A DNA stretch of 64,000 bases from Rahnella aquatilis CIP 78.65 = ATCC 33071. GTDB taxonomy: Bacteria > Pseudomonadota > Gammaproteobacteria > Enterobacterales > Enterobacteriaceae. Below, in pieces: positions 433 to 46,975 of the stretch (positions within the stretch are counted from its first letter, which is position 1; the number at the start of each line of letters is the position of its first letter). The position numbers were made by a program, and so were the translations under genes. The stretch is from positions 62,001 through 126,000 of the forward strand of contig NC_016818.1 in assembly GCF_000241955.1 (NCBI RefSeq), given 5' to 3'. Under the pieces are notes generated by a model. The model was given only the letters and a program-made list of their open reading frames with translations. It made no database searches and was not told the DNA's origin.

Positions 433-1095
433 ATGTCCAGGAAGCTATTATATTTTTTCATCTACACACTATTTATTTGTTTATTATCAATTGGTTGTAC
501 CGTGGCCTATTATCAATATGTGGTGCTTGATTCAGGGGCAGAATCCTTGATTCAGATGGATGAAGGAAAGGTATCGAACAGCCCGTTAAAAGACAGCGAC
601 GTGTTAGTGGAAATAATGTCTTATGGCTGCCATTTTTGCGCCATTAATGACAAAGCTATTACTGAATTAGAAACGCGGCTGCCACAAGGGGTAAGAGTTG
701 TCCGTCTGCATCTGGAAAACACCGGTTCACGTGGTTTGGCTCGCTACGCCCGACTTTTTGCAACATTACAGGTCATGGGAATAGAACCGCAGTATCGTGA
801 AAAAGTGTATGCCGCTATTATCGATGACAACAAAGATCTCTCTGATAATATTATCTTAAATCGCTGGTTGTCGACGAACAGTATTGATGTCGAAAAATAT
901 CACGCCGTGGAAGCATCACAGGAAACAACAGACCTTATAAAATATATGAATGATGTCAGTCATTATTATGATGTCTCCGCGACGCCTGCTTTTATTGTCA
1001 ATAAGAGGTGGGTTGCGTTCCAGGATCGTGATTTCGATAAGTTCGGTGACCATTTGCTCTCATTACTGAAAAATAATAAACCACTGGAACAATGA
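433..1095 (+). CDS. DsbA/thioredoxin-fold oxidoreductase of the peptide cluster
   Basis: A 220-residue protein with an N-terminal hydrophobic anchor (residues about 5-30) and a periplasmic thioredoxin-like domain. The redox motif is Cys66-His-Phe-Cys69, and the cis-proline loop reads SATPAF near the C-terminus, as in DsbA/DsbG-type thiol oxidoreductases. It probably forms or shuffles disulfides in the periplasm. The four-cysteine peptide encoded at the end of the cluster is the obvious candidate substrate (inference). I chose the ATG at 433, after a purine-rich GAGAG/GGGA stretch, over an upstream in-frame TTG at 415. The stop overlaps the start of the next gene, so the two are translationally coupled. 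A lipoprotein form is possible because Cys22 follows a hydrophobic run, but the lipobox is poor. Confidence 0.75.
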   Translation: MSRKLLYFFIYTLFICLLSIGCTVAYYQYVVLDSGAESLIQMDEGKVSNSPLKDSDVLVEIMSYGCHFCAINDKAITELETRLPQGVRVVRLHLENTGSRGLARYARLFATLQVMGIEPQYREKVYAAIIDDNKDLSDNIILNRWLSTNSIDVEKYHAVEASQETTDLIKYMNDVSHYYDVSATPAFIVNKRWVAFQDRDFDKFGDHLLSLLKNNKPLEQ

Positions 1096-2042
1096 TGCGT
1101 TTCCTTCCCGTATGGATTTATATGCAGAGTCTTTTTCTGCTTTCTAAAATAGAAAGACAAGGGCTCATATTCCTTCTGCGTGGATTGAAACAAACCCGAT
1201 GGGTGCTGAATAAGATACCGCTGGGTGTCATTTTCGCAGGGTTGCATACAGTGAGACTTCTCCGGCTGACCGGTAAAGATCAAAACGCCCGTTCTCTCGT
1301 CGCCAGTGAAAATAAAAGATGCTTAACAGGCGATGACGGTAAAGTGGATTTTACCTGGACGGCGCAGCGCCGTAAGGCTCTGGATTACGCGGCAACATAC
1401 GGTAAAAATAAAAAGGTCATCAGCCAACTCGATGCCTGTGCTGCCGAGCTAGATAAGATTGTTGTGCCGCTTCATCAGGCTAAGAAACCGGTTATGTTGG
1501 CCCCTCTGCACATGGTGTCAGATATTCTGGCTGGCATTGTGGCCAGTAAAACCTGTCCGGGTAAAGGCACGGTGATCGTCTCTTCCAATGCTGAACACTA
1601 TATCGAACAGGACAGAATGAAAGGCGGCATAAATCTTGACTATTGCTCTATTCACAATAAAAGTCAGGATGTCGCGAAAAATATGATTTCTGCCTGCATG
1701 GAGGCGGCTGAAAATAAAAGCAATATCATTATTTTTCCGGACATCACACCGGACTATACAATAGCGACTGATAGTGCTTATTCCTCCAAGCTTAAATGCC
1801 GTTTATTTGATCGCCCTGCTAAATTACATAATGGCGTGGTCAGACTGGCAAAAATGCTCTCGGCGGACGTCGTGTTTTATTATTTGTATTATGACCGTGG
1901 GTTGAAAATACGTATTTTCCCCGCCGTCAGTGCAAAGAATGTGGCAGAAAAAATGCCGGAAATTATTGAGCATTCCATCAGAAGTCATCCTCAGGACTGG
2001 CTTTTATGGCATCTCCACTCTCTTTACTTTATTAATGAATAA
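1092..2042 (+). CDS. Putative acyltransferase, LpxL/LPLAT-like
   Basis: A 316-residue protein with a hydrophobic or amphipathic N-terminal third. The core resembles lysophospholipid/lipid A acyltransferases: a segment APLHMVSDIL could hold the catalytic His-Asp pair, and a later FPDITPDYTIATDS segment resembles the second conserved block of LpxL-type enzymes. The His-Asp spacing is HX3D, one residue shorter than the classical HX4D, so family membership is likely but not certain. Such enzymes move an acyl chain from acyl-ACP to an amine or hydroxyl at the inner membrane. The ACP, ketosynthase, dehydratase and ketoreductase genes in the same operon could supply the chain, and the acceptor may be the exported peptide (inference). 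Two adjacent ATGs (1092 and 1095) overlap the preceding stop. Confidence 0.55.
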   Translation: MMRFLPVWIYMQSLFLLSKIERQGLIFLLRGLKQTRWVLNKIPLGVIFAGLHTVRLLRLTGKDQNARSLVASENKRCLTGDDGKVDFTWTAQRRKALDYAATYGKNKKVISQLDACAAELDKIVVPLHQAKKPVMLAPLHMVSDILAGIVASKTCPGKGTVIVSSNAEHYIEQDRMKGGINLDYCSIHNKSQDVAKNMISACMEAAENKSNIIIFPDITPDYTIATDSAYSSKLKCRLFDRPAKLHNGVVRLAKMLSADVVFYYLYYDRGLKIRIFPAVSAKNVAEKMPEIIEHSIRSHPQDWLLWHLHSLYFINE

Positions 2043-2060
2043 ATTCCAGAAGAAATCATA

Positions 2061-4199
2061 ATGAGTCGTATTATTCCAGAGATGGTTTCACAAAGTGAAA
2101 TCAATGAGTGTGGTTTAGCCTGTATTGCGATGCTGGCGGATACCCAGGGAGTCAGTGTGACTCTTCCTCAGTTGCGAGACGCTTATCCTATTTCAGTACA
2201 CGGCACCTCTCTGGATACCCTGGCGACCATTTTATCAGATTACGCTATTCCGGTTTATCCCGTTTTATTTTCACCCGATGAAATTCAGGATTTACCGCTT
2301 CCTGCTATTCTTCATTATGGTGCGGGTCATTATGTTGTACTCGCTTACCGTAAAGGGGAAAGGGTGTGTGTCATGAACCCCGCAATCGGTCAGCAATTTT
2401 TAACCTTCGATGCGCTTAAAAAAGATATCAGTGGATATGCCCTGATAATAGATGAAGAGGCTGAGCCGAAAGAAACAAAATCCGCACCTGACCCTGCCGC
2501 GCCAAATAAATCATTTTTTGCCTGTCTGAGTCTGGAGCAAACGTCGAAAATAAAAGGTATTTATTTTCTGATGACGCTCGCTTTTCTTGTGTCGCTGACT
2601 TTATTTATTATGCCTGCCATGGTCGGACAGGCTATTAATGATGTCTTATCTGCGGCGGGGAAAGAAGATTTTCCTTATTTGCTTTTTCTACTCGCCTTTG
2701 TGATTTCGACAGCGCTGGCATTGTGGGTGCGTTCGGTCACGGAACAATGTGTAAAGCGCTTTGCGGTACTTAATAGTACGGCCGGATTTTCGCGGCTGCT
2801 GAGCAATTCCCTGCGTTTTTTTGAACGTCGGGCACCCGGCGAAGTCTTCAGTCGTTTTTCCGCATGGGAAACCGCCGCGTTGCAAAAGATTGAGCTGGAT
2901 AACGGCCTGCGTACTGACTGGATCATCGGTCTTTTGGCGTTCATCGTCATGGCTTACATGAGTTTTTCGCTGGCGCTGGTCTCCCTGGCCGGTGTGACCC
3001 TGATGGGGCTGGTGAGCGTCTGGGCTATCTATCGTGATCGATTCTATGCCCAGCAAATGCAGGAACGTATCGCTGAACAAAACGAATACATCCTTGAGTC
3101 AATTCACGGTTTCACGACGATAAAATCCGCCGGTTTATACGAGCAGCGCAAAAGCATGTTCGCCACTTATACGCTGGCGCTGTTTAACTGTATTCAGAAA
3201 AAACAAATTTATGAGCAGGTGAAAAACAGCATTTATCAGATGGCTGGCAGCCTTGAAATGGTCCTTTTCATGTTTCTGGCGCTGCCTTTGCTGAAAAATG
3301 GGGTGATCTCTTTGGGCAGCTTTTTTGCCTACAGTTTTATCCGGCAGATTTTCTCTTCTTACATCACCAAGATTTTCTTTGCAGTATTGCAGAAGAACCA
3401 GTTGCACATCATCGACCAGCGTGCCGCCGATCTGTTCCCTGCCACTGATGTCTCCGGGAAAGCGCCTGCGCGGCAGGCACAAGTTTGCGAACCGTTTTCT
3501 TTTACCGGCCAGCTAAAATTCGAGGATATCGCTTTCCGTTATGACAGCGCGAAACCGACGCTGCACAGCATGACTTTTGCGGTTGAGCAGGGTCATACCG
3601 TGGCGATAGTCGGTGAGTCAGGTGCGGGAAAAAGCACACTCATCAAAATTATCGCCGGCTTGCTGATACCGGATGAGGGGCAGATCAGTCTTCAGGGCAA
3701 TGAAATCACGTCGCATCAGATTGAAAAATTATGTTTCCTGCAAAGTCAGGAAGACATTCTGTTCAATACCAGTGTGCTTGAAAACATAACTTTATTTGAT
3801 CCTCACTACGATGACAGCCAGCAAAACCGTATCAGCGCATTGCTCGAAGGGCTCGGCCTGACAGGGGTCATCGGGCAGCTTCCCGGCGGGATGAATGCCA
3901 GGATCCGGGAAAGTCATACCGGCCTTTCGCTTGGGCAGCGTCAGCGCCTGTTACTGGCCAGGGCAATGTACAGCAACCGGCCGGTATTAGTGCTCGATGA
4001 ACCCACGGCAAATCTGGATGATGAAATGGCATCGCAGGTCATGATGTCCGTGATGGCACATTGTCATGAACAGGGAAAAACCCTGATTGTCGTCACACAC
4101 AGTAAAACTATTCTCAACCAGTTTGACCATGTTTATCACCTCGACCACGGCCACTTGTTGCCTCATGACAGCAGGGTGATTCAGGGATGTGTCGCATGA
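2061..4199 (+). CDS. Peptidase C39 domain ABC exporter (bacteriocin type)
   Basis: A 712-residue protein with three parts. Residues 1-135 are a C39 leader peptidase with Gln11, Cys17 in NECGLACIAML, and His90 in GAGHYVVL. Residues about 165-440 are the transmembrane domain. The nucleotide-binding domain carries Walker A GESGAGKST, signature LSLGQ, Walker B VLVLDEPTANLD and an H-loop in VVTHSK. Proteins of this kind cut double-glycine leaders on the cytoplasmic side and pump out the mature peptide. The third triad residue, usually Asp in a DPAxG motif, is Asn106 here (MNPAIG). A good Shine-Dalgarno (AGAAG) precedes the ATG. The cognate substrate is most likely the GG-leader peptide at 12142. 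Confidence 0.93.
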   Translation: MSRIIPEMVSQSEINECGLACIAMLADTQGVSVTLPQLRDAYPISVHGTSLDTLATILSDYAIPVYPVLFSPDEIQDLPLPAILHYGAGHYVVLAYRKGERVCVMNPAIGQQFLTFDALKKDISGYALIIDEEAEPKETKSAPDPAAPNKSFFACLSLEQTSKIKGIYFLMTLAFLVSLTLFIMPAMVGQAINDVLSAAGKEDFPYLLFLLAFVISTALALWVRSVTEQCVKRFAVLNSTAGFSRLLSNSLRFFERRAPGEVFSRFSAWETAALQKIELDNGLRTDWIIGLLAFIVMAYMSFSLALVSLAGVTLMGLVSVWAIYRDRFYAQQMQERIAEQNEYILESIHGFTTIKSAGLYEQRKSMFATYTLALFNCIQKKQIYEQVKNSIYQMAGSLEMVLFMFLALPLLKNGVISLGSFFAYSFIRQIFSSYITKIFFAVLQKNQLHIIDQRAADLFPATDVSGKAPARQAQVCEPFSFTGQLKFEDIAFRYDSAKPTLHSMTFAVEQGHTVAIVGESGAGKSTLIKIIAGLLIPDEGQISLQGNEITSHQIEKLCFLQSQEDILFNTSVLENITLFDPHYDDSQQNRISALLEGLGLTGVIGQLPGGMNARIRESHTGLSLGQRQRLLLARAMYSNRPVLVLDEPTANLDDEMASQVMMSVMAHCHEQGKTLIVVTHSKTILNQFDHVYHLDHGHLLPHDSRVIQGCVA

Positions 4200-5368
4200 A
4201 CGTCCTGCGACGCTATCGCGTGTTCAGTATTGCCAGTCTGACGCTGTGTGTGTTCATCGCCGCCACCGCTTTGCTGATAGCCCACCGCACCGACAACTCT
4301 GCAACCCGTCATCACATTGATGTCATCGGGCGTGGCGATATACAAACCACGGTGATGACGACGGGTGTGCTTCAGCCTCTGAAAAAAATAAGTGTTGGCG
4401 CACAAGTGAACGGCCAGCTTAAGAAATTGCACGTAAAGCAGGGTGACAGGGTGAAGAAAGGTCAGCTGCTGGCTGAGATTGACCCTGTTATTCAGCAAAA
4501 TGAATTGCGTAACGCGCAAGCCGAACTGCACAGTAACCGGGCGCAAATGCAGTCAGATAAAGCCCTGTTAAAGCAATATCAACTGGCGTTAACGCGGCAG
4601 AATAAAATGGCGCGCGACAGTGCGGGAGTGCAGAGCGATCTGGAATCCGCGCAGGCGCAATACGACGTGCAGCGTGAACAATTGAATATGGATGCTGCGC
4701 GGGTTGTACAGGCTGAGATTTCCGTCGAAACCGCCAAAGCCAATCTGGGATACACCCGAATTATCGCGCCTATTGACGGTGAGGTATTGGGCATTATCAC
4801 TCAGGAAGGGCAGACCATCGTTTCCTCCCAAACTGCGCCGACCATCATGGTGCTTGCTGATATGAGCGTCATGCGGATACAAACTCGCATTTCCGAAACC
4901 GATATCCTCAAAACGCATCCGGGCCAATCTGTGTGGTTTTATGTGATGGCAGATCCGACACGACGGTATGAAAGCGTGATGGGGGCGATTCAGGATGCGC
5001 CCGAAGAAGCGCTGCGCGAATCGAATGAGAGTTCCGGCAATACTCAGCAGTCCACTGCGGTTTATTACAACGGCGAATTTACTATCAGCAATGAGCAGCG
5101 TCGACTGAAAACATCCATGACGGCAGAGGCTTATATCATTATCGGTGAGGTGAAAAATGCCCTGCTGGTGCCATTAACCGCTGTGGGTGAACGCTCCCCG
5201 GAAGGGCGCTATCACGTACAGGTGAGAGAGAAAGATAAAATCACTGACCGGCTGATTGAGCTTGGGATCAGGGATAACAAATTTGCAGAAGTGAAATCAG
5301 GTCTGGCGCAAGGCGATCGGGTGGTAAGTACAACCTCTGCTCCGGGAGACGCAGATGCCAGCCAGTGA
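4196..5368 (+). CDS. macA: MacA-like periplasmic adaptor (membrane fusion protein)
   Basis: A 390-residue HlyD/MacA-type adaptor. It has an N-terminal membrane anchor (about residues 10-30), a biotinyl-lipoyl half-motif (VGAQVNGQLKKLHVKQGDRV), a long alpha-helical hairpin rich in Q, A and R, the second lipoyl half (APIDGEVLGII) and beta-barrel/membrane-proximal domains. It would link an inner-membrane ABC pump to the outer-membrane channel. The ATG at 4196 overlaps the stop of the C39 exporter as ATGA; an in-frame ATG at 4187 is an alternative. It sits between two ABC genes, so it could serve the C39 exporter, MacB, or both. Confidence 0.9.
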   Translation: MNVLRRYRVFSIASLTLCVFIAATALLIAHRTDNSATRHHIDVIGRGDIQTTVMTTGVLQPLKKISVGAQVNGQLKKLHVKQGDRVKKGQLLAEIDPVIQQNELRNAQAELHSNRAQMQSDKALLKQYQLALTRQNKMARDSAGVQSDLESAQAQYDVQREQLNMDAARVVQAEISVETAKANLGYTRIIAPIDGEVLGIITQEGQTIVSSQTAPTIMVLADMSVMRIQTRISETDILKTHPGQSVWFYVMADPTRRYESVMGAIQDAPEEALRESNESSGNTQQSTAVYYNGEFTISNEQRRLKTSMTAEAYIIIGEVKNALLVPLTAVGERSPEGRYHVQVREKDKITDRLIELGIRDNKFAEVKSGLAQGDRVVSTTSAPGDADASQ

Positions 5369-7307
5369 GCCTCTGATTTTATTACACCATGTCTCGCGTG
5401 TTTTCAGTTCGGGAGATCAGCAGGTTTCGGTGCTTGACGACGTTTCGCTGTCAGTTCAGGCAGGTGAGATGCTCGCGATTGTCGGGCCTTCTGGCTCGGG
5501 AAAATCCACCCTGATGAATATCTTAGGCGGGCTTGATATCCCGGACAGCGGCGAGGTCCGCATTGCCGGAATTGATACCCTCAACGCCTCTCATGAGCAG
5601 CTTGCCGCTTTGCGAAGCAGCAATATTGGTTTTATTTTCCAGCGTTATCACCTTATGCCTTATCTGACCGCGGCGGAAAACGTTGCCGTACCGGCTCAGT
5701 ACACCGCAATGCCGGAAAACGTTCAGGAGCAGCGTGCTGCCTACCTGTTGGAACATCTGGGGCTGAAGGAGAGAATGCAGCATAAGCCCTCCCAGCTTTC
5801 CGGCGGTCAGCAGCAACGGGTCAGTATCGCCCGCGCCCTGATGAACGGGGCGCCAATTATTCTTGCTGATGAACCGACCGGTGCGCTGGATGCGCAGAGC
5901 GGTCAGGAAATGATGGCGATTTTGCACGGACTTCATCAGTCCGGACATACCATTATTCTGGTGACGCATGACCGCAACGTTGCCTCTCAGGCAGAGCGAA
6001 TCATTGAAATCAGTGACGGCAAAATCATTGCGGATACGCCTAATCCCAGCGTTCACCAGGCCAGCGTGCCGGTGGTATTGCTTCCAGCGGTCAATACGGG
6101 GCGTTCTTCATGGCGGCAAAGTCTTCATGATGCGATAAAAATGGCCTGGCGGGCGCTGAACGGGCACCGGGTCAGGGCATTGCTTTCTATGCTGGGGATC
6201 ATTATTGGCGTGACGTCAGTGATTACTTCGATGGCGGTCGGTGAAGGCGCTAAGCTGAAAATAATTCGTGATATCAGCGCATTAGGCACCAGTACTGTGG
6301 CGGTTCGTCCCGGTCTTGGCTGGGACAATCCGCGGCCTGATCTCAGTGACTCCCTGACGCTCGGGGACGTCAGCACGCTGTCTGAGCTGCCTTTCGCTGT
6401 TCATGTTTCACCTGTTTTCACCCGTAACCTGGAGGCTCAGGTCGGCGGACGGCAAATGTTTTTTAATCTCACGGGGGTGAGCTCAGATTATTTTGCTGTG
6501 CACGATCTGGCCTTAAAAGAGGGGCGCAAACTCAACGAACACGATGTGGATGCCAGAGAGCCGGTTTTGCTGATTGACTCAGCCTCCGCTGAGACATTGT
6601 TTCATGAAGATAAAAATCCTTTAGGGGAAACAATTTATCTCAACAATGTGCCGTTGCGTGTTGTGGGGATTACGGCACCCAAAGGTTTAAAGAACATGGG
6701 TGGAGGCCTGAACGCCTGGATGGCTTATACGACGTTACAGGAACGTTTGACCGGACGTATGCCAGTCGGCGCGATTGAAATCCAGGTCGCGAAAGGTATG
6801 ACGTTGAAAGAAGCACAGCGGCGTATTGAATATGTGCTCGAAAAATCCCACGGTCGGCGTGATTTCTTCATTGAAACCGACGATATGATGCTGGAAACCC
6901 TGCAGAAAACTTCCGACTCTTTGACATTGCTGATTGCCACGATTGCGGGTATTTCACTGGTTGTCGGCGGCGTGGGTGTCATGAACATCATGCTGGTTTC
7001 GGTAGCCGAACGTATGCATGAAATAGGCATCCGGCTGGCTGTCGGTGCCCGCGCGGTGGATATCATGCGCCAGTTTCTGATTGAGTCGGTGGTGGTCTGC
7101 CTGTTTGGCTGTGTGGTGGGGGTGATTGTCACGTTTGTCGCAGGAACACTCTTCTCTGTGCTGACAAATCGATTCGAAATGGTGTTTACGCCGTTACCGA
7201 TATTTTACTCCTGCTGTTTCTCGGCCCTGATTGGTCTGGGTTTTGGATTCTTTCCGGCCCGTTTCGCCGCCCGGATGAAACCGACGGAGGCGCTGGCCAG
7301 AGAATGA
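5355..7307 (+). CDS. macB: MacB-like ABC exporter with FtsX-type permease
   Basis: A 650-residue fusion of an N-terminal ATPase and a C-terminal MacB/FtsX permease. The ATPase has Walker A VGPSGSGKSTLM, signature LSGGQQQRV and Walker B ILADEPTGALD. One transmembrane helix near residue 275 is followed by a large periplasmic domain and three C-terminal helices. The length matches E. coli MacB. With the adjacent adaptor and outer-membrane gene it forms a complete tripartite pump, acting as a mechanotransmitter for periplasmic substrates in the known family. It overlaps the adaptor gene by 14 bases and the next gene by 4. A role in export of, or self-protection against, the cluster product is inferred. 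Confidence 0.93.
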   Translation: MPASEPLILLHHVSRVFSSGDQQVSVLDDVSLSVQAGEMLAIVGPSGSGKSTLMNILGGLDIPDSGEVRIAGIDTLNASHEQLAALRSSNIGFIFQRYHLMPYLTAAENVAVPAQYTAMPENVQEQRAAYLLEHLGLKERMQHKPSQLSGGQQQRVSIARALMNGAPIILADEPTGALDAQSGQEMMAILHGLHQSGHTIILVTHDRNVASQAERIIEISDGKIIADTPNPSVHQASVPVVLLPAVNTGRSSWRQSLHDAIKMAWRALNGHRVRALLSMLGIIIGVTSVITSMAVGEGAKLKIIRDISALGTSTVAVRPGLGWDNPRPDLSDSLTLGDVSTLSELPFAVHVSPVFTRNLEAQVGGRQMFFNLTGVSSDYFAVHDLALKEGRKLNEHDVDAREPVLLIDSASAETLFHEDKNPLGETIYLNNVPLRVVGITAPKGLKNMGGGLNAWMAYTTLQERLTGRMPVGAIEIQVAKGMTLKEAQRRIEYVLEKSHGRRDFFIETDDMMLETLQKTSDSLTLLIATIAGISLVVGGVGVMNIMLVSVAERMHEIGIRLAVGARAVDIMRQFLIESVVVCLFGCVVGVIVTFVAGTLFSVLTNRFEMVFTPLPIFYSCCFSALIGLGFGFFPARFAARMKPTEALARE

Positions 7308-8734
7308 AAATACTCTTTACAGCGATACTGGCATGTTGTCTGGCCGGATGCGGGGCTTTTCTCAAAACACCTTATCAGCAACCTGAGTTGAATTTGCCGC
7401 AAGACTGGCAGAACAAACAAACGGGCACGGCCTGGCTTACCCATACCCCGCAATGGTGGCGTGTTTTTAATGATCCACAGTTTTCTCAGATGATCAGCGA
7501 TGTGCTAATCCACAATGATGATCTGGCTATCGCCGGTTACCGGTTGCGTCAGGCTGCGCTGGATGCGGGGCTGAGCAACACGAATCTGACGCCTGATGTC
7601 AGTGCCGGGGGAGAGGCCAGCAACAGTAAAAACACCCGGCGCAATACCGCCGCCCATGAAAATTATAATGCTTCTGTCACAACGAGTTATGAGCTGGATC
7701 TGTGGGGCAAGCTGGCGCGGACGCGTGAACAGGCGCAATGGCAGATGAATGCCACCGCCCTTGACCGGCAAAATACAGCGTTAATGCTGATCGGGACAAC
7801 GGGCCAGTATTACTGGCAAATCGCCGCGCTTAACGAACAAATCGGCAATACCGAAAAAAGTATTCAACTGGCAATGGAAACCGAAAGGATAACCCGTTCC
7901 GGCTATGAGGCGGGGGCGATCAATCAGCTGGATGTGCTGCAGGCGCGGCAGTCAGTGATTGATCAAACCAATAGCTTGCGTGAGCTGAACCAACAAAGAG
8001 AAGAAGCGCGTAATGCGCTGGCGATTCTTTTCGGCCGTGCGCCGTCAGCACGTGCGCCGGAGAAAATGTTTCTCGATCCCCGGCAGACCATCGGGCTGAC
8101 ACCTGATTTGCCTTTATCGGTCATCAGCCGCAGGCCGGATGTGCAGTCGGCTGAATGGAAACTCCGGGCTTCACTGGCGGCGTCCGATGTGGCGAGGCTG
8201 AATTTTTATCCTTCCTTGTCATTAGGTGCCACGTTGGGAGCAGGCAGTGCGGTGTTCAGCGAGTGGTTTTCCAATCCGGCACGGACGCTGAGCAGCGGCC
8301 TGACGTTACCTTTTGTGCAATGGAATACGGTACAACTGACCGTAGAACGCTCAGAACTGGATGTCAGACAGGCGGCGGCTACCTTCCGTCAGTCGGTCTA
8401 CAGCGCATTGTCTGACGTTGAAAATACAACCTCACAAAGAAACACTTATCAGGCTCAGCGTGAAGATCTTCTGGTTTCTCTTGGGCTGGGTGAGCAACGG
8501 CTGCGTTTAGCCAAAAGTCAGTATCTGGCCGGGGCGGTTTCCCTGCAAACCTGGCTGGATGCGCAAAGCAGCCTGCTGAGTGCTGAAAATCAGCTGGCGG
8601 ATGCCCAGGCCCGATATCTCAATGCAACGTTGCAACTGTGGCTGGCGCTCGGCGGGGAAGTCAACCTCGATGAAATTATCGCCAGTGCCCATGTTAATAC
8701 CCCTCCAGGGAAGGAAAATAAGCGTAATGGATAA
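7304..8734 (+). CDS. NodT/TolC-family outer-membrane efflux lipoprotein
   Basis: A 476-residue outer-membrane factor. The N-terminus has a lipoprotein signal with lipobox CLAGC (Cys16). Two repeated OMF domains follow, with typical phrases such as SYELDLWGK, SVISRRPDVQSAEW and ARLNFYPSLSLG. It would form the trimeric outer-membrane channel for the MacAB-type pump and possibly for the C39 exporter. It overlaps macB by ATGA, showing coupling. No homologue-level specificity can be read from sequence. Confidence 0.92.
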   Translation: MKILFTAILACCLAGCGAFLKTPYQQPELNLPQDWQNKQTGTAWLTHTPQWWRVFNDPQFSQMISDVLIHNDDLAIAGYRLRQAALDAGLSNTNLTPDVSAGGEASNSKNTRRNTAAHENYNASVTTSYELDLWGKLARTREQAQWQMNATALDRQNTALMLIGTTGQYYWQIAALNEQIGNTEKSIQLAMETERITRSGYEAGAINQLDVLQARQSVIDQTNSLRELNQQREEARNALAILFGRAPSARAPEKMFLDPRQTIGLTPDLPLSVISRRPDVQSAEWKLRASLAASDVARLNFYPSLSLGATLGAGSAVFSEWFSNPARTLSSGLTLPFVQWNTVQLTVERSELDVRQAAATFRQSVYSALSDVENTTSQRNTYQAQREDLLVSLGLGEQRLRLAKSQYLAGAVSLQTWLDAQSSLLSAENQLADAQARYLNATLQLWLALGGEVNLDEIIASAHVNTPPGKENKRNG

Positions 8735-9980
8735 GTCACATTCTTTAAAAAGAGTCGTCGTCACAGGCTACGGCGCCATCACTCCGTTGGGAATGAATGC
8801 GCATCAGAGCTGGGATGCCATCATGGCGTATGAAACAGGTTACCGGTATATCGACAGGCGTTCCGGGGGGATCAAATCCCGCTTCTTTGGCCTGATAGAG
8901 GGCGAACTTAACCTGAAATTTCTACCAGCCGGTATCCGCCGCCGGTTACCACGCTTTGCGCATTTAGCGCTTATTGCGGCACGTGAGGCGATGGAGATGG
9001 CTTTCGGCGATACGTCGCTGACGCAATATCATGCCGAACTTGATCGCGGCGCCATTATCGGCACAGGCTGGGGTGGGCTGGATGAAACGGTCAGTAATCA
9101 CGATAAATATCGGGCAAGCGGCCTGGGGTCAACCTTCGGATGTTTTTACTCTATGCCCAGCATTGCCACTGCAGCTTGCAGCCAGCACTGGATGCTGAGG
9201 GGCTATCAGAATACGCCTTCTGCCGCTTGTGCAACCGGTACGATCGCCATAGGTGATGCTTTCAATGCTATCCAAACCGGGCGCGCAACCATGATGCTGG
9301 CGGGCGGTGCAGAATCATTACGTACCGACACGGCGGTCTGGAATATCGATGTCCTGAGCGCCCTGACCCGCGAAGAGCAGGACATCACCAAAGCCAGTTG
9401 CCCGTTCAGCCTTGAACGTAACGGCTTTGTGTTGTCCGAAGGCGCGGCGGTGTTATGCCTGGAAGACCGGGAGATCGCACTGGCGCGTGGCGCGACCATT
9501 TTGGGTGAGATCACCGGCTACGGTAATTTCTCTGATGCCGTCGATTTTACAGCACCGGCTGAAGACAAACTGGCTCGGGTCAATACCATTCAGGCTGCAC
9601 TGAGTCAGGCGGGATTAAGCGCCGGTGAGCTTGACTACATCAATGCGCACGGGACTTCCACTCAGCTCAATGACCGCAATGAAACGGAATCTGTGAAGCT
9701 CGCGCTGGGTGAAAAAGCGTATGACATCCCGGTTTCCAGTACCAAGGGTTACAGCGGCCATCTCATTGCCGCAGCAGGAAGTTTCGAAAGCATTGTCTGC
9801 CTGCAGGCGCTTGAGCATCAGATTATGCCTGCCACTCATCATTTGAGACTGGCCGATCCTGCCTGCGATCTGGATTTCATTCGCGAAGGACACCGGCCTG
9901 CATCCCTGCAAAACACCCTCAATCTGAGCTTTGGTTTTGGCGGAGCCAATGCTGCATTAGTGATCAGCAGGGGGGAGTGA
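8727..9980 (+). CDS. Beta-ketoacyl-ACP synthase, KAS II (FabF-like)
   Basis: A 417-residue condensing enzyme. It has Cys168 in SAACATGT and the two catalytic histidines in NAHGTSTQLND and KGYSGHLIAAAG, so the Cys-His-His triad is intact. The C-terminal glycine-rich SFGFGGANAALV is typical of KAS II. It would elongate an ACP-bound acyl chain with malonyl units. The start at 8727 follows AAGGAAA and overlaps the end of the outer-membrane gene by 8 bases; an in-frame upstream extension inside that gene is rejected. Its place in an exporter/peptide operon suggests secondary metabolism instead of housekeeping fatty-acid synthesis. Confidence 0.92.
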   Translation: MDKSHSLKRVVVTGYGAITPLGMNAHQSWDAIMAYETGYRYIDRRSGGIKSRFFGLIEGELNLKFLPAGIRRRLPRFAHLALIAAREAMEMAFGDTSLTQYHAELDRGAIIGTGWGGLDETVSNHDKYRASGLGSTFGCFYSMPSIATAACSQHWMLRGYQNTPSAACATGTIAIGDAFNAIQTGRATMMLAGGAESLRTDTAVWNIDVLSALTREEQDITKASCPFSLERNGFVLSEGAAVLCLEDREIALARGATILGEITGYGNFSDAVDFTAPAEDKLARVNTIQAALSQAGLSAGELDYINAHGTSTQLNDRNETESVKLALGEKAYDIPVSSTKGYSGHLIAAAGSFESIVCLQALEHQIMPATHHLRLADPACDLDFIREGHRPASLQNTLNLSFGFGGANAALVISRGE

Positions 9981-10780
9981 TGAACTTATTCTACGGTGAG
10001 CAGGATGCACAAGCATGGGCAAAATTTTCGGGTGACTACAATCCGATTCATTTCGATTTACAGCATGCGCAGGCAATGGGACTGGAGAGCCTGACGGTTC
10101 ACGGTATGCGCGCGTTGCTGGATATGAAAAATCATCTGAGTCATGCCGTCGCGCCGATGAATTCGGATTACTACCAGTTCAGCGCCCGTCTGCGGCAGGC
10201 GGTGAAGTGCCAGACACCTTACCGGCTTATCTCCGCCCTGAACGTGGCCGGTTCAGCAGCCAGCAGTCAGCTTACTGAGCTGGACTCAGGATTGTGCTGT
10301 TTTAGCGGCAAGCTGAACGGCACGCTTAAGCGGCCAGACGTAGATATCCCACTAAAACAAACCCTTACGGAGGAAGAACTTGCGGTATTGATTGCGGCAT
10401 ATCCGTCAGAGAAGTCAGAGACGATGTCATGGGAAGTCCTGGACGCGGTTTTATTTGAGCGGATCGTGAACATTCCCGAGACACTGGATTGTGTCCGGGA
10501 AGCGATACCACACCTGTCGGCGATGTCGCTGGCCGATGTGTTTAAGCTGATCCCTGTGGTGCAAACTCATCACGACGTGTTTTTTAACCATCAGCATCTG
10601 ATTACCCCGGCTCGGGAAGCTGTTGGCAGACCCTTCCGTTATGGCCTGCTGCCCGTATTGATCATCGGAAACGCAGAGCAGGGTTTTGTTATCCGCATGA
10701 CCATCCAGGGAGGGTATGACGCACATCCCTCAATCATGACCGCGATAACCCTGAAAACCTGGCCTGTTCAGACACATTAA
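9980..10780 (+). CDS. MaoC-like hot-dog dehydratase
   Basis: A 266-residue protein whose first 50 residues carry the hydratase-2 motif: FSGDYNPIHFD then AQAMGLESLTVHGM. Asp19 and His24 are the expected catalytic dyad of R-specific enoyl-CoA/ACP hydratases (MaoC family). The rest is poorly conserved and may be a second, degenerate hot-dog half. It would dehydrate the 3-hydroxyacyl-ACP produced by the ketoreductase encoded nearby. The ATG overlaps the KAS stop by one base (TGATG). Confidence 0.75.
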   Translation: MNLFYGEQDAQAWAKFSGDYNPIHFDLQHAQAMGLESLTVHGMRALLDMKNHLSHAVAPMNSDYYQFSARLRQAVKCQTPYRLISALNVAGSAASSQLTELDSGLCCFSGKLNGTLKRPDVDIPLKQTLTEEELAVLIAAYPSEKSETMSWEVLDAVLFERIVNIPETLDCVREAIPHLSAMSLADVFKLIPVVQTHHDVFFNHQHLITPAREAVGRPFRYGLLPVLIIGNAEQGFVIRMTIQGGYDAHPSIMTAITLKTWPVQTH

Positions 10781-10797
10781 AGACTAAGGAAAGAAAA

Positions 10798-11049
10798 ATG
10801 AGTGAAGTAATAAAAAGTGAAATTTACAGCATTGTGTGTGAAATGTTATGCGATGCGAAAGACCTTGAACCAGAAACATTAAGTGAAGATCTTCCGCTTA
10901 AAAGCCTGAAGCTCGACAGTCTGGATTATGTTGAGTTAATGGTGCTGGTGAAGCGTGAGTTTGATATTTCTCTCAGCGCGGATATGTTTATTGAACACCC
11001 CGATATGACGCTGGGGGAAATGTGTCAGATGCTGGAAGCATTACGTTAA
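10798..11049 (+). CDS. Acyl carrier protein
   Basis: An 83-residue acidic four-helix carrier protein with the phosphopantetheine attachment motif LDSLD (Ser41). It would hold the growing acyl chain for the neighbouring ketosynthase, ketoreductase and dehydratase, and possibly donate it to the acyltransferase at 1092. AAGGAAAG gives a strong ribosome site. No phosphopantetheinyl transferase is encoded in the cluster, so a host enzyme would have to activate it. Confidence 0.93.
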   Translation: MSEVIKSEIYSIVCEMLCDAKDLEPETLSEDLPLKSLKLDSLDYVELMVLVKREFDISLSADMFIEHPDMTLGEMCQMLEALR

Positions 11050-11786
11050 TGAATACCCGGAAATGGATACTGATTACCGGAGGTAGTCGGGGAATAGGCA
11101 AGGCTATGGTTATTCGCCTGTCAAAAAAATACGATATTGTCTTTACCTGGAATACGAATGCTGATCAGGCTCAATCTGTTGAAAAGGATTGCGCGGATAC
11201 CTTTGGTGAAGTCAGAGGATATTGTTGCGATGGCAGAAATGAAGAACAGGTTAGCCTGCTTGCCCGGTTGTTGCTCACAGAACGGGGAGCGCCATACTGC
11301 ATTATCCATAATGCGGGGATAACACGGGATGCTTTACATATTAAGCAGACTTCTGCCGACTGGCATGATGTTATCAATACCAATCTTAATGCGATATTTC
11401 ACTGGAATCAGCATTTGCTGCCACCCATGCTGGCGCGCGGCGAAGGGAGTGTCATCATGATGTCTTCTGTTTCTGCACAGAAAGGGAATGTCGGACAGGT
11501 TGCATACAGTGCTACAAAAGCGGCAATGACCGGCATCACACGATCACTGGCGCTGGAAGTTGCCCGCTTTGGCATCAGGGTGAACAGTCTTTTACCGGGC
11601 GTCATTGAAACGGAAATGACGGCTGCCCTGAGGGATGAGGAACGTAAGGCATTACGTTCTCATATCCCTTTGCGCAGATTAGGAAAAGCCGATGAAATTG
11701 CACTGATGGCTGATTTTTTATTAAGTGAATCCGGCAGTTATATTACCGGTCAAAGTATTATTATAGACGGAGGACTGAGCGCCTGA
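11049..11786 (+). CDS. 3-ketoacyl-ACP reductase, FabG-like SDR
   Basis: A 245-residue short-chain dehydrogenase with the NADPH-binding TGGSRGIG motif (10-17), NAG in IIHNAGITRD, the catalytic Ser and Tyr-xxx-Lys (SSVSAQKG and YSATK) and a C-terminal ITGQSIIIDGG. It would reduce the 3-ketoacyl-ACP made by the cluster ketosynthase. The start overlaps the ACP stop as TAATG, so it is the last gene of the coupled run that begins at 433. There is no enoyl reductase, acyltransferase for malonyl, or thioesterase nearby. The chain may therefore stay hydroxylated or unsaturated, or host enzymes may complete the cycle (inference). Confidence 0.92.
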   Translation: MNTRKWILITGGSRGIGKAMVIRLSKKYDIVFTWNTNADQAQSVEKDCADTFGEVRGYCCDGRNEEQVSLLARLLLTERGAPYCIIHNAGITRDALHIKQTSADWHDVINTNLNAIFHWNQHLLPPMLARGEGSVIMMSSVSAQKGNVGQVAYSATKAAMTGITRSLALEVARFGIRVNSLLPGVIETEMTAALRDEERKALRSHIPLRRLGKADEIALMADFLLSESGSYITGQSIIIDGGLSA

Positions 11787-12141
11787 TAAGTTAAAATAAA
11801 CCTTCTTAATACAGTTTATTTTTATTATTGTGATTTATTTTGCAAGGGGTTGTTGTATGCGGATAATATGATTTTAAATTTATAATTATTTAATATAAAT
11901 GAGTTGATGATATTATATTATTTGTTTATCATACTGCTTATCCCGATGTTAGCTGTCAACGCAGAATATTTTACGGCAATTTATTGCTGGCGTTAAGTTT
12001 TGCAAGTATTAAATGATCTGGTGATATTAATATTCACTTCGTGAATATTAATGGGTTGGGTTATTTATAAAGTGCTGTAATGAAGTTGAAGTGAGTGTTA
12101 TTTAATTAAATATGTTTAACTTTTAATAAGGAAATTAATCA
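11787..12141 (+). other. AT-rich leader region of the peptide gene
   Basis: This 355-base stretch has no convincing ORF and is much richer in A/T than the genes on either side. It should contain the separate promoter for the peptide gene. The only clear structure is the 12-bp palindrome at 12026-12052. A Shine-Dalgarno, AAGGA, sits just before the ATG at 12142. No clean -35/-10 pair could be assigned. Confidence 0.6.
12026..12052 (+). promoter_or_regulatory. Palindrome/hairpin upstream of the peptide gene
   Basis: A perfect 12-bp inverted repeat (ATTAATATTCAC and its complement) with a 3-nt TTC loop, about 90 bases before the peptide start. It is not followed by a T-run, so it is not an intrinsic terminator. 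It could be an operator for a regulator or an mRNA 5' hairpin. Confidence 0.55.
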
Positions 12142-12324
12142 ATGAAGAAAATTACTACAGAAGTTGCAAAAGAAATCATCGGCGGCAAAGATTCATGTGA
12201 AAGCTCTTATCAGTGGAATGGCAACCGTTGTGAGTATCAAACACGTTGTTATGACAAGCATGGTAACCTTTCTTCTAAATCCGCTACTCAGGCTGGCAGC
12301 ACCTACTATTGCCAGCCTAAATAA
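12142..12324 (+). CDS. Double-glycine-leader peptide, putative class II microcin-like precursor
   Basis: A 60-residue peptide. Residues 1-15 form a leader ending in IIGG, with the hydrophobic-spacing pattern of double-glycine leaders cut by C39 peptidases. The predicted 45-residue mature part starts KDSCESS and holds four cysteines (mature positions 4, 15, 21, 42), so two disulfides are possible. It is hydrophilic and aromatic-rich. It resembles small GG-leader peptides annotated as DUF4762 in Serratia and relatives; I recall this family but could not check it. The adjacent C39 exporter, DsbA-like protein and acyl-chain genes fit a modified, secreted peptide. No immunity gene is recognisable. 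Ribosome site AAGGA. Confidence 0.8.
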   Translation: MKKITTEVAKEIIGGKDSCESSYQWNGNRCEYQTRCYDKHGNLSSKSATQAGSTYYCQPK

Positions 12325-12355: not shown

Positions 12356-12392
12356 AAAGACATGGTTGAGTTATCTTCCATGTCTTTTTATT
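12356..12392 (+). terminator. Rho-independent terminator of the peptide gene
   Basis: A 10-bp stem (AAAGACATGG with CCATGTCTTT) and a 12-nt loop, followed by TTTATTTT. It lies 31 bases after the peptide stop and before the convergent mdfA end. Confidence 0.85.
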
Positions 12393-12393
12393 T

Positions 12394-13629
12394 TCAGGCG
12401 CTCGCACCTGTAATCACAATTTGCCTGCTGCGCAGAAACACCACTACCAGCGCCAGCCAGGCGAGGCCGCTAATCAGGTTGAACAGGTTAAACATCCCCG
12501 TACCGCCTTCAACGTAAGCCACTTTTGCCAGCTCAATCCCGAGCGTGAATATCATCATGCTGATGACGCCCATTGCCGCAGAAACAGTGCCTTTGCTCAT
12601 GTCGCTGGAGAACAGCGTCAGGCGGTACAAACCGGCATTCGCCACCCCAATCCCGAACGCATACAGGCTCAGACCCGCAGTCATCCACAGATACGCATGC
12701 GCGGAAAACAGCGTAGCCACTGCGGCGATCAACAGGCCGACCACCATCGGACCCGCACCCAGCTTAATCAGGTATTCGACGGTGCGTTTGCCGGACAGGC
12801 GTGCCAGCGTCACGTTACCGATGATCAGCGCGCCGAAAATTGGCACCTGCAACAACCCGTAATCGTAGGCCGCTAAGCTTTCACCGCTGATTAAAATCAC
12901 CGGCGACTGCGCAATCCACGTCAGCAGCGGCAGGCTGGCAAAACCAATTGCCAGTGCGCCGCACAGGAATTGACGGTTTTTCAGCACATGTTTGTAATCG
13001 CGCAGCAGACTCGGCATGGAGAAGGGTTCACCCAGACGGGAAGCGGTCTCCGGCATGGATTTCCATAACCCCCACAGCGCAATGGCGGCAAGTACAGCGA
13101 AAATCACAAACATCGACTGCCACGGCGCAACGTGGATCAGCGCCGCACCGGCCAGCGGACCGAGCAGTGGCGCAATCAGCGCGACGTTCGCCATCATGGC
13201 GGTGATTTTAATACACACCGATTCCTCGAAGGATTCCTGTATCGCGGCATAGCCGACCGCGCCGATAAAGCACAAGCTGATGCCTTGCAGGAAACGCATC
13301 ACCATAAACTGCTCGATGTTTTGCGCAAACAGAATTGCCAGACAGGTGATGATGAAAAAACTCACGCCCGCGAGCATCACCGGACGACGCCCGCGCCTGT
13401 CGGACAGCGGGCCGAGCAGCCATTGCAGGAACATGCCGCCAGCCAGATACGCGGTCATGGATGTCGGCACCCACTCTTCCCCGGCATTAAAATTAGCCAC
13501 GACGGCCAGCATGCCCGGTTGGATCATATCGTTACCGATATAGGTCGCGAACTCGAACAGCACCAGGCACAGAGGGAACAAAAGCGCCTGCCGTCCCAGA
13601 AGGGACGCAGTATTTGGAGAATTATGCAT
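12394..13629 (-). CDS. mdfA: Multidrug efflux MFS transporter MdfA
   Basis: A 411-residue, 12-helix major facilitator protein that exchanges protons for diverse cationic and neutral drugs across the inner membrane. The length equals E. coli MdfA (410). The functionally important acidic residues Glu26 and Asp34 are at the same positions ([11 protein letters not shown]). Motif A between helices 2 and 3 reads [13 protein letters not shown]. It is a single-gene unit that converges with the peptide gene, and it is probably core genome unrelated to the cluster. Confidence 0.95.
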
Positions 13630-46557: not shown

Positions 46558-46634
46558 CGGCGAGTAGCGCAGCTTGGTAGCGCAACTGGTTTGGGACCAG
46601 TGGGTCGGAGGTTCGAATCCTCTCTCGCCGACCA
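46558..46634 (+). tRNA. proM: tRNA-Pro (anticodon TGG)
   Basis: A 77-nt cloverleaf: acceptor CGGCGAG/CTCGCCG, D arm with GCGCAGCTTGGTAGCGC, anticodon stem ACTGG/CCAGT around loop TTTGGGA (anticodon TGG), T arm with GGTTCGAATCC, and an encoded CCA. It is essentially identical to E. coli proM as I recall it. Its last 17 bases are repeated twice downstream. Confidence 0.97.
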
Positions 46635-46646
46635 TATTCGAAAAAG

Positions 46647-46673
46647 CCTGCTTTTTTAAAGCAGGTTTTTTTT
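46647..46673 (+). terminator. Terminator in repeat unit 1 (tRNA-Pro)
   Basis: An 8-bp stem CCTGCTTT/AAAGCAGG with a TTT loop and eight T, starting 12 bases after the tRNA CCA end. Confidence 0.93.
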
Positions 46674-46685
46674 CGTCTGTAGTAA

Positions 46686-46788
46686 AGAGGATGAGAACCT
46701 CCGAAGGAGGTTTGAGCTGAGCGAAGCGAGACCACGTTGCTTTAGCAACGGCCCGCAGGGCAAGCATCGAAGATGCGCATCATCCTCT
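46686..46788 (+). ncRNA. Candidate structured RNA domain in repeat unit 1
   Basis: A 9-bp closing stem (AGAGGATGA 46686-46694 with TCATCCTCT 46780-46788) encloses four short perfect hairpins: 46696-46712 (loop GAA), 46735-46750 (loop TTTA), 46751-46761 (loop GCA) and 46764-46776 (loop GAA). The same set recurs 165 bases later. It is a proposal from pairing only; transcription past the first terminator is not shown. Confidence 0.45.
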
Positions 46789-46811
46789 CTCGCCGACCAT
46801 ATTCGAAAAAG

Positions 46812-46838
46812 CCTGCTTTTTTAAAGCAGGTTTTTTTT
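46812..46838 (+). terminator. Terminator in repeat unit 2
   Basis: An exact copy of the unit 1 terminator, 165 bases downstream: stem CCTGCTTT/AAAGCAGG with a T-run. Confidence 0.9.
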
Positions 46839-46975
46839 CGTCTGTAGTAAAGAGGATGAGAACCTCCGAAGGAGGTTTGAGCCGAGCGAAGCGAGACCAC
46901 GTTGCTTTAGCAACGGCCCGCAGGGCAAGCATCGAAGATGCGCATCATCCTCTCTCGCCGACCATATTTGAAAAA

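What the first reader, a model, noticed from the sequence alone, without database searches (positions are those of the whole stretch)
433..12324. Possible acylated, disulfide-bonded microcin pathway with two exporters
One coupled run of ten genes joins a DsbA-like oxidoreductase, an LPLAT-like acyltransferase, a C39 peptidase-exporter, MacA, MacB, an outer-membrane channel, and a small fatty-acid module (KAS, MaoC-like dehydratase, ACP, ketoreductase). A four-cysteine double-glycine peptide follows. Seen directly: motifs, overlaps and order. Known: C39 exporters cut GG leaders; the four lipid enzymes form most of an elongation cycle. Inferred: the acyl chain is attached to the peptide, making a lipidated microcin. 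An alternative is that the lipid and peptide are separate products.
Basis: partly seen in the sequence, partly recalled or inferred. Interest (0 to 1): 0.92.

Follow-up and report, generated by a model that had tools for sequence, protein, structure and literature searches.

The report
Conserved pathway for exported lipid-linked peptides
A ten-gene bacterial operon and a small cysteine-rich peptide of unknown function travel together across many enterobacteria, and probably fold the peptide, attach a fatty chain to it and ship it out of the cell, often from within a gene cluster for surface hairs (fimbriae).

Summary
Ten overlapping or closely spaced genes (433-11786) encode DsbA-like, LPLAT-fold, C39-exporter, MacA, MacB, outer-membrane channel, KAS, MaoC-like, ACP and ketoreductase proteins; a 60-residue double-glycine peptide with four cysteines follows (12142-12324). 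I found 80 distinct operon loci; 59 share one order, with the peptide just upstream of dsbA. In 392 sampled family genomes the acyltransferase occurs in 47, the peptide in 46, both in 45; the two acyltransferase-only genomes carry a second double-glycine peptide type. The peptides are Pfam DUF4762 (26 of 27), a family without known function. Their core has one invariant lysine ([D/N]-K-x-G; K in 82 of 82 cores). Peptides beside operons without DsbA have two cysteines, not four to six. Operons usually sit near chaperone-usher fimbrial genes (19 of 22 tested, about 2 expected); the window's copy does not. Best reading: a pathway that acylates the peptide (most likely that lysine), exports it by C39, oxidises it with DsbA and releases it by MacAB plus channel. 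Coupling of lipid module and peptide is strongly supported; acyl attachment is inferred; 'microcin' (killing) is unsupported: no immunity gene found, conserved core.

The parts
433..1095 (+). DsbA-like thiol oxidoreductase with N-terminal hydrophobic anchor; active site C-H-F-C, conserved Pro185
   Evidence: PF01323 34.3 bits; both active-site Cys in 45 of 46 sequences (one gap)
1092..2042 (+). LPLAT-fold acyltransferase; invariant H-x-x-S-D (H140, D144) and F-P-D (215-217)
2061..4199 (+). C39 peptidase-ABC exporter with catalytic Cys and His; Asn-Pro at the usual Asp-Pro position
   Evidence: Cys, His, Asn in 49 of 51 (two gaps)
4187..5368 (+). MacA-like periplasmic adaptor
   Evidence: NF008606 MacA 299.7 bits, below equivalog cut-off 342
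5355..7307 (+). MacB-like ABC transporter
   Evidence: MacB 696.6 bits, below equivalog cut-off 966
7304..8734 (+). NodT/TolC-like outer-membrane channel
   Evidence: OEP 143.7; TIGR01845 254.5 bits, over its cut-off
8727..9980 (+). FabF-like ketoacyl synthase, Cys-His-His
   Evidence: Cys, His, His in 51 of 51
9977..10780 (+). MaoC-like (hotdog) dehydratase, GDYNPIHFD motif
   Evidence: Asp and His in 49 of 49
10798..11049 (+). acyl carrier protein, DSL serine
   Evidence: Ser in 51 of 51
11049..11786 (+). SDR-type ketoacyl reductase, YxxxK
   Evidence: Tyr and Lys in 47 of 47
12142..12186 (+). leader of the precursor peptide, MKKITTEVAKEIIGG (double-glycine)
   Evidence: predicted helix at residues 6-14
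12187..12324 (+). core of the DUF4762-type peptide, 45 residues, four Cys (19, 30, 36, 57), stop included
   Evidence: modelled as three strands (pLDDT 71)
12253..12264 (+). D38-K39-H40-G41 turn; K39 is the one invariant Lys of the family, candidate acylation site
   Evidence: 82 of 82, 54 of 54, 111 of 111

Best explanation
This is a dedicated biosynthesis and export pathway for a small ribosomal peptide of the DUF4762 family. KAS, MaoC-like dehydratase, ketoreductase and the private ACP build or tailor an acyl chain with help from host fatty-acid synthesis. The LPLAT-fold enzyme on the cytoplasmic face of the inner membrane moves the chain from ACP to the precursor peptide, most likely to the invariant Lys of the [D/N]-K-x-G turn. 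The C39 exporter cuts after GG and moves the peptide into the periplasm. DsbA forms the disulfides there. MacA, MacB and the dedicated channel then pump it from the periplasm to the outside. Shown by sequence: gene content, order, active-site conservation, co-occurrence, the invariant Lys, and the link between DsbA and cysteine number. Inferred from family knowledge: C39 cleavage, DsbA oxidation, MacAB export. Inferred here and untested: acyl attachment to the peptide and its site.
For: 80 distinct operon loci, 59 with one order. Of 73 with enough flank, 68 have a family peptide beside the operon by profile and 4 more a second double-glycine peptide type, seen by eye. In 392 family genomes: MaoC 46, peptide 46, both 44; LPLAT 47, with peptide 45; Fisher p 3e-53 and 2e-55, without correction for kinship. 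Active-site residues kept in every sequence that covers them, in seven enzyme families. One invariant Lys: 82 of 82 distinct cores, 54 of 54 after thinning at 70% identity; the next Lys column has 29 of 82. The second peptide type, otherwise unlike, also has K-[N/D]-G. DsbA present: 61 of 61 full-length adjacent peptides have 4-6 Cys; DsbA absent: 7 of 7 adjacent peptides have 2 Cys. In G690 the peptide gene lies between the LPLAT and C39 genes. G684 and G740 lack MaoC and KR beside the operon but keep LPLAT, KAS and ACP. Precedent: enterotoxin STII gets two disulfides in the periplasm and leaves by MacAB-TolC (passages of PMC5985334); side-chain acylation of Lys or Orn in RiPPs by GNATs (passages of PMC13060382).
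Against: No measured acylation. The nearest solved folds, PatA and LpxM, acylate glycolipids, not peptides (substrates recalled). D-K-x-G also reads as a plain beta-turn (modelled between strands 2 and 3), so Lys invariance may be structural. The Lys counts are partly circular, since the search profiles contain that Lys; the first harvest asked only for GG and at least two Cys. G651 lacks an operonic DsbA although its distant peptides have four Cys, and its operon L123 has no peptide beside it. None of the 46 peptide-bearing genomes lacks both MaoC and KAS, so co-occurrence cannot separate 'acylated peptide' from 'lipid made alongside'; operons with DsbA and C39 but neither lipid genes nor this peptide were not searched for.
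Confidence: 0.57

Rival explanations
1. The lipid module and LPLAT modify a membrane lipid or lipid A in the producer, giving self-protection or a platform for the peptide; the peptide itself is only cleaved and disulfide-bonded.
For: Nearest folds PatA and LpxM, glycolipid acyltransferases. No separate immunity gene was found in or beside the operon, so some other self-protection is needed if the peptide is toxic. Constant retention of LPLAT with the peptide fits immunity too.
Against: Does not explain the single invariant Lys. Modification of lipid A would not obviously need a private KAS, dehydratase, KR and ACP. The conserved motif is H-x3-D, unlike the H-x4-D/E that I recall for LpxL/LpxM.
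Confidence: 0.22
2. Peptide and lipid are two separate exported products, one leaving by the C39 exporter and the other by MacAB plus channel, made together because both serve surface colonisation.
For: Two export systems in one operon. Glycolipids are listed among MacB substrates (Table 2 passage of PMC5985334). Fimbrial setting.
Against: No adaptor other than MacA is present in the operon for the C39 exporter, so MacA-MacB-channel would be needed to complete peptide export; near one-to-one retention of peptide and LPLAT.
Confidence: 0.12
3. The peptide is acylated at its new N-terminus after GG cleavage (lipolanthine-like), not on Lys.
For: N-terminal lipidation is known for microvionin, goadvionins and lipoavitides (passage of PMC13060382).
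Against: C39 cleavage is coupled to export, whereas acyl-ACP is cytoplasmic (family knowledge); the first core residue varies widely (Thr 40, Cys 9, Asn 6, Lys 6 and nine other residues among 80).
Confidence: 0.09

Closest known systems
Class IIa microcins (MccV, L, N, PDI, S)
   Same: Double-glycine leader, C39 peptidase-ABC exporter, small core with possible disulfides, Enterobacterales.
   Different: No CvaA-type membrane-fusion partner and no immunity gene found; dedicated outer-membrane channel rather than shared TolC; private DsbA, lipid module and MacAB; core conserved rather than highly variable; killing activity unknown.
Selidamides / nostolysamides (GNAT-acylated RiPPs)
   Same: Ribosomal peptide; here Lys side-chain acylation is predicted, there it is known.
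   Different: No lanthionine synthetase and no GNAT among the ten genes; LPLAT-fold enzyme and private ACP/KAS/MaoC/KR instead; Cys pairs instead of lanthionines.
Lipolanthines (microvionin), goadvionins, lipoavitides
   Same: Acyl chain joined to a ribosomal peptide.
   Different: Those are class III lanthipeptides lipidated at the N-terminus, attributed to GNATs in the passage seen; neither enzyme type is among the ten genes.
E. coli STII enterotoxin export (DsbA, then MacAB-TolC)
   Same: Small disulfide-bonded peptide oxidised in the periplasm and released by MacAB and a channel.
   Different: STII enters the periplasm by Sec and no lipid is mentioned; here the proposed entry is by C39 and all parts are in one operon.
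Aryl polyene / dialkylresorcinol type clusters (recalled)
   Same: KAS, hotdog dehydratase, KR, ACP and an LPLAT-type enzyme.
   Different: No second KAS, ligase or aromatic starter enzyme among the ten genes. Related KAS-MaoC-KR/ACP sets in 24 loci (Photorhabdus, Azoarcus and others; MaoC 24-30% identical) show no peptide, DsbA or LPLAT by profile and only a weak C39 hit in one; a number have a MacB-like or weak MacA-like gene nearby.

Membership tests
Class II microcin | Precursor with double-glycine leader | tested here: met
   definition from passages of PMC9746304
Class II microcin | C39 peptidase-ABC transporter with catalytic residues | tested here: met
   Cys and His in 49 of 51 (two gaps); Asn in place of Asp before Pro in all 49
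Class II microcin | Cognate membrane-fusion protein (CvaA type) beside the transporter | tested here: not met
   the only adaptor is MacA-like, directly before macB
Class II microcin | Adjacent immunity protein | tested here: inconclusive
   no conserved small companion gene recognised; recurrent neighbours are fimbrial, regulatory and HD-domain genes and one unassigned 184-residue ORF; immunity proteins lack sequence similarity, so absence is not proof
Class II microcin | Antibacterial activity | not testable with these tools
   needs an assay
Pfam DUF4762 (PF15959) | Profile match of the peptide | tested here: met
   26 of 27 members at E <= 0.1; the window's own peptide scores 19.0 bits, below the cut-off of 27, but aligns with the family
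Lipidated RiPP | Precursor peptide genetically tied to an acyltransferase | tested here: met
Lipidated RiPP | Acyl group on the mature peptide | not testable with these tools
   needs mass spectrometry
Selidamide / lipolanthine | GNAT acyltransferase and lanthionine synthetase | tested here: not met
   none among the ten genes
LPLAT superfamily | LPLAT fold | tested here: met
LPLAT superfamily | H-x4-D/E catalytic motif (recalled) | tested here: not met
   conserved H-x3-D instead (APxHxxSD); so it is LPLAT-fold, but its chemistry is not assured
MacAB efflux | MacA and MacB equivalog scores | tested here: not met
   299.7 of 342 and 696.6 of 966 bits; a MacAB-like paralogue pair

The most novel reading that the evidence does not exclude
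A fimbria-coupled family of ribosomal lipopeptides: DUF4762 precursors are fatty-acylated on one invariant lysine by an LPLAT-fold enzyme fed by a private mini fatty-acid synthase, exported in two steps (C39, then DsbA oxidation, then MacAB and channel), and deployed together with chaperone-usher fimbriae on surfaces or in contact with other cells. Extra DUF4762 genes elsewhere in the same genomes are further substrates served in trans.
Probability: 0.33. Interest if true: 0.86.

Novelty: new variant of a known kind. Interest (0 to 1): 0.74.

Why it matters
It gives a function hypothesis to a domain of unknown function and to a ten-gene operon present in about one in eight sampled species genomes of the family (47 of 392). 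It predicts peptide acylation by an enzyme whose nearest solved relatives work on lipids, names one residue to test, and ties a secreted lipopeptide to fimbriae. It also puts a C39 exporter and the STII-type DsbA-then-MacAB route in one operon, a ready model for two-step export.

Tried and rejected
Plasmid or E. coli origin: no near match in 20,395 E. coli records; in 72,556 plasmid records one 104-base macB match. Aryl-polyene cluster: rejected because a second KAS, ligase and starter enzymes are absent from the ten genes (feature list recalled). Immunity gene: clustering 2172 flank ORFs gave mostly fimbrial, regulatory and HD-domain genes; I looked at the 14 largest clusters only; one 184-residue ORF on the opposite strand recurs in 24 loci, has no Pfam match and stays unexplained. 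Fold of the peptide: no PDB match at E <= 0.001; model pLDDT 71. A sub-threshold match of the window's peptide to ADGRF3_N (24.1 bits, cut-off 31) is held by 1 of 27 members and taken as chance. PDB sequence search with the LPLAT profile: one chance-level hit. Promoter scan near peptide and dsbA: no excess beyond about two sd over shuffles. Papers: DUF4762 in 0 papers. Searches listed no paper that, from title or abstract start, describes this system; in some only 20 of 106, 10 of 56 and 15 of 776 papers were listed. PMC9746304, PMC10233263, PMC5985334 and PMC13060382 were seen only as passages. In PMC9746304's main text 'fatty acid', 'acyl', 'fimbria', 'MacB' and 'DsbA' do not occur, but its supplementary hit lists were not seen, so some of these peptides may be among its predicted microcins.

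Rows dropped before counts: in the Cys count two ORFs (L039, L051), which I judge cut by the locus edge, are left out, giving 61 instead of 63; six further edge-cut peptides (L010, L011, L013, L017, L020, L025) gave no core. In the adjacency count I left out seven of 80 loci with too little flank or a contig end (L009, L018, L021, L023, L024, L028, L043). L123 is a true miss. Two loci lack a KR call and the Serratia rubidaea and Trabulsiella odontotermitis loci (L026/L146, L035/L166) have several genes in pieces. The four variant-order peptides were judged by eye, not by profile.
Full report
WHAT IS THERE. The window (G000:C1:62001-126000) carries ten same-strand genes from 433 to 11786, each overlapping its neighbour or 17-18 bases from it: DsbA-like, LPLAT-like, C39-ABC, MacA, MacB, outer-membrane channel, KAS, MaoC-like, ACP, KR. 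A 60-residue peptide follows after a 355-base AT-rich gap, at 12142-12324, with a ribosome-binding-like AAGGA and a GG leader. One match in its genome.

IT IS A REAL, WIDE SYSTEM. A MaoC profile (25 sequences) fetched 78 loci from the species-genome collection. Annotating them and 50 operon regions from unnamed species genomes gave 80 distinct operon loci after removing identical KAS sequences: 59 PEP-DsbA-LPLAT-C39-MacA-MacB-OMF-KAS-MaoC-ACP-KR; 4 the same but cut before the peptide; 4 with a changed order (MacA-MacB-OMF-KAS-MaoC-ACP-KR-LPLAT-C39, no DsbA); 2 PEP-LPLAT-... without DsbA; 2 without peptide and DsbA (L009, a contig end, and L123); 2 lacking KR; 2 lacking both MaoC and KR; 2 contig fragments; and three single arrangements: the window's (peptide at the 3' end), L019 (3' peptide, no DsbA) and L120 (peptide between LPLAT and C39). 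Genera include Yersinia, Serratia, Rahnella, Klebsiella, Enterobacter, Citrobacter, Providencia, Hafnia, Pantoea, Erwinia and Trabulsiella.

CO-OCCURRENCE. In 392 genomes drawn from the family: MaoC profile 46, peptide profile 46, LPLAT profile 47. MaoC and peptide share 44; LPLAT and peptide share 45. MaoC and LPLAT without profile peptide: G632 and G635, which hold the changed order and a different double-glycine, two-Cys peptide. Peptide without MaoC: G684 and G740, whose operon keeps LPLAT, KAS and ACP. Peptide without LPLAT: only G679, a broken-up assembly (600 contigs, 73% complete). Two same-genus genomes (G543, G685) have none of the three, so the system is accessory. In a wider sample of the order PF15959 was found in 6 of 394 genomes, all among the 8 with a strong MaoC match (six further MaoC matches are weak). 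Fisher p is 3e-53 and 2e-55 but ignores kinship. Against exclusivity of the lipid quartet: 24 distant loci (L062-L085) have KAS, MaoC and KR, mostly with ACP, without peptide, DsbA or LPLAT by profile.

THE PEPTIDE. 26 of 27 aligned members match Pfam DUF4762. A profile search of 5.8 billion proteins returned 111 proteins, those with names called DUF4762, hypothetical or uncharacterised. In 82 distinct cores, K of the K-x-G motif is 82 of 82, its Gly 82 of 82, the four Cys 77, 82, 80 and 79; after thinning at 70% identity K is 54 of 54; in the 111 proteins 111 of 111. No other Lys column exceeds 29 of 82. The profiles contain this Lys, which inflates later counts, but the first harvest asked only for GG and Cys. 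The second peptide type, found by position, has N-K-D-G, R-K-D-G or D-K-N-G; L019 has N-K-H-N. The model (pLDDT 71) has a leader helix and three strands with D-K-x-G as the turn between strands 2 and 3, so a structural role is possible. Some genomes carry further family peptides far from the operon (fetched: L122, L124-L134, L137), in every case in genomes that have an operon.

DISULFIDES. All 61 full-length peptides beside operons with DsbA have 4-6 Cys in the core. The seven beside operons without DsbA have two (three by profile; four by eye). Exception: G651 lacks an operonic DsbA but has four-Cys peptides elsewhere in the genome. DsbA keeps both Cys of C-x-x-C and Pro185.

EXPORT. Class II microcins use precursor, immunity protein, C39 transporter, fusion protein and TolC (passages of PMC9746304). 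Here no CvaA-type fusion protein is in the operon; the adaptor is MacA next to MacB. STII offers a matching second step: periplasmic peptide, two disulfides by DsbA, release by MacAB-TolC (passages of PMC5985334). I therefore favour two steps in series: C39 across the inner membrane, DsbA, then MacAB and channel across the outer membrane. Acylation should precede export because acyl-ACP is cytoplasmic, and a side chain is then likelier than the new N-terminus (inference).

SURROUNDINGS. Flank ORFs include, again and again, fimbrial subunits, PapD chaperone, usher, FimB-type recombinase, FaeA-like, LuxR and OmpR/ToxR-type regulators and an HD-domain protein (one representative of each cluster was profiled). 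Of the 48 sampled genomes with an operon I tested the 20 in at most four contigs (22 operons): an usher gene lies within 20 kb of the operon's MaoC or KAS gene in 19 (expected 1.95; not corrected for kinship, but two layouts exist, fimbriae upstream and fimbriae downstream). In L184 (upstream layout) a 294-residue fimbrial-type ORF, an adhesin by position and not profiled, ends about 330 bases before the peptide gene on the same strand. The window's own operon is one of the three exceptions (nearest usher 220 kb away). This suggests use with surface attachment or cell contact; it does not say whether the peptide kills, signals or coats.

VERDICT. The link of lipid module, exporter and peptide is strongly supported; peptide acylation on Lys is the best but unproven reading; 'microcin' should be dropped until activity is shown.

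Noticed in passing
loci L138-L181, L184-L187: The operon usually lies beside a chaperone-usher fimbrial cluster with FimB-type recombinase and regulators (19 of 22 operons tested).
   Followed up: partly
L118 and L119 (G684, G740): Reduced operon without MaoC and KR but with LPLAT, KAS and ACP: a natural test of which lipid enzymes are needed.
   Followed up: partly
L122, L124-L134, L137: Extra DUF4762 peptide genes away from the operon, in genomes that have an operon.
   Followed up: partly
L121:10580-11844: A DUF4762 peptide directly before a lone MaoC-like gene with no other operon genes, in a genome (G651) that has a DsbA-less operon elsewhere.
   Followed up: no
L086:13064-13615 (- strand) and 23 other loci: A recurrent 184-residue ORF without Pfam match, opposite strand downstream of the operon, in largely the same loci as an OmpR/ToxR-type regulator.
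   Followed up: no
L062-L085: KAS-MaoC-KR/ACP sets without peptide, DsbA or LPLAT in Photorhabdus (beside a cysteine-desulfurase-like ORF, by eye), Azoarcus, Acetobacteraceae and others: modules of other pathways.
   Followed up: partly
L014:2128-4254: The C39 exporter gene of this Rahnella inusitata locus is split into two reading frames.
   Followed up: no
window 12356-12394: A 10-base inverted repeat (AAAGACATGG / CCATGTCTTT) followed by T-rich sequence just after the peptide gene, terminator-like by eye; the scan, limited to loops of 3-8, reported none.
   Followed up: no
window 46558-46964: tRNA-Pro (TGG) followed by two RtT RNA repeats.
   Followed up: no
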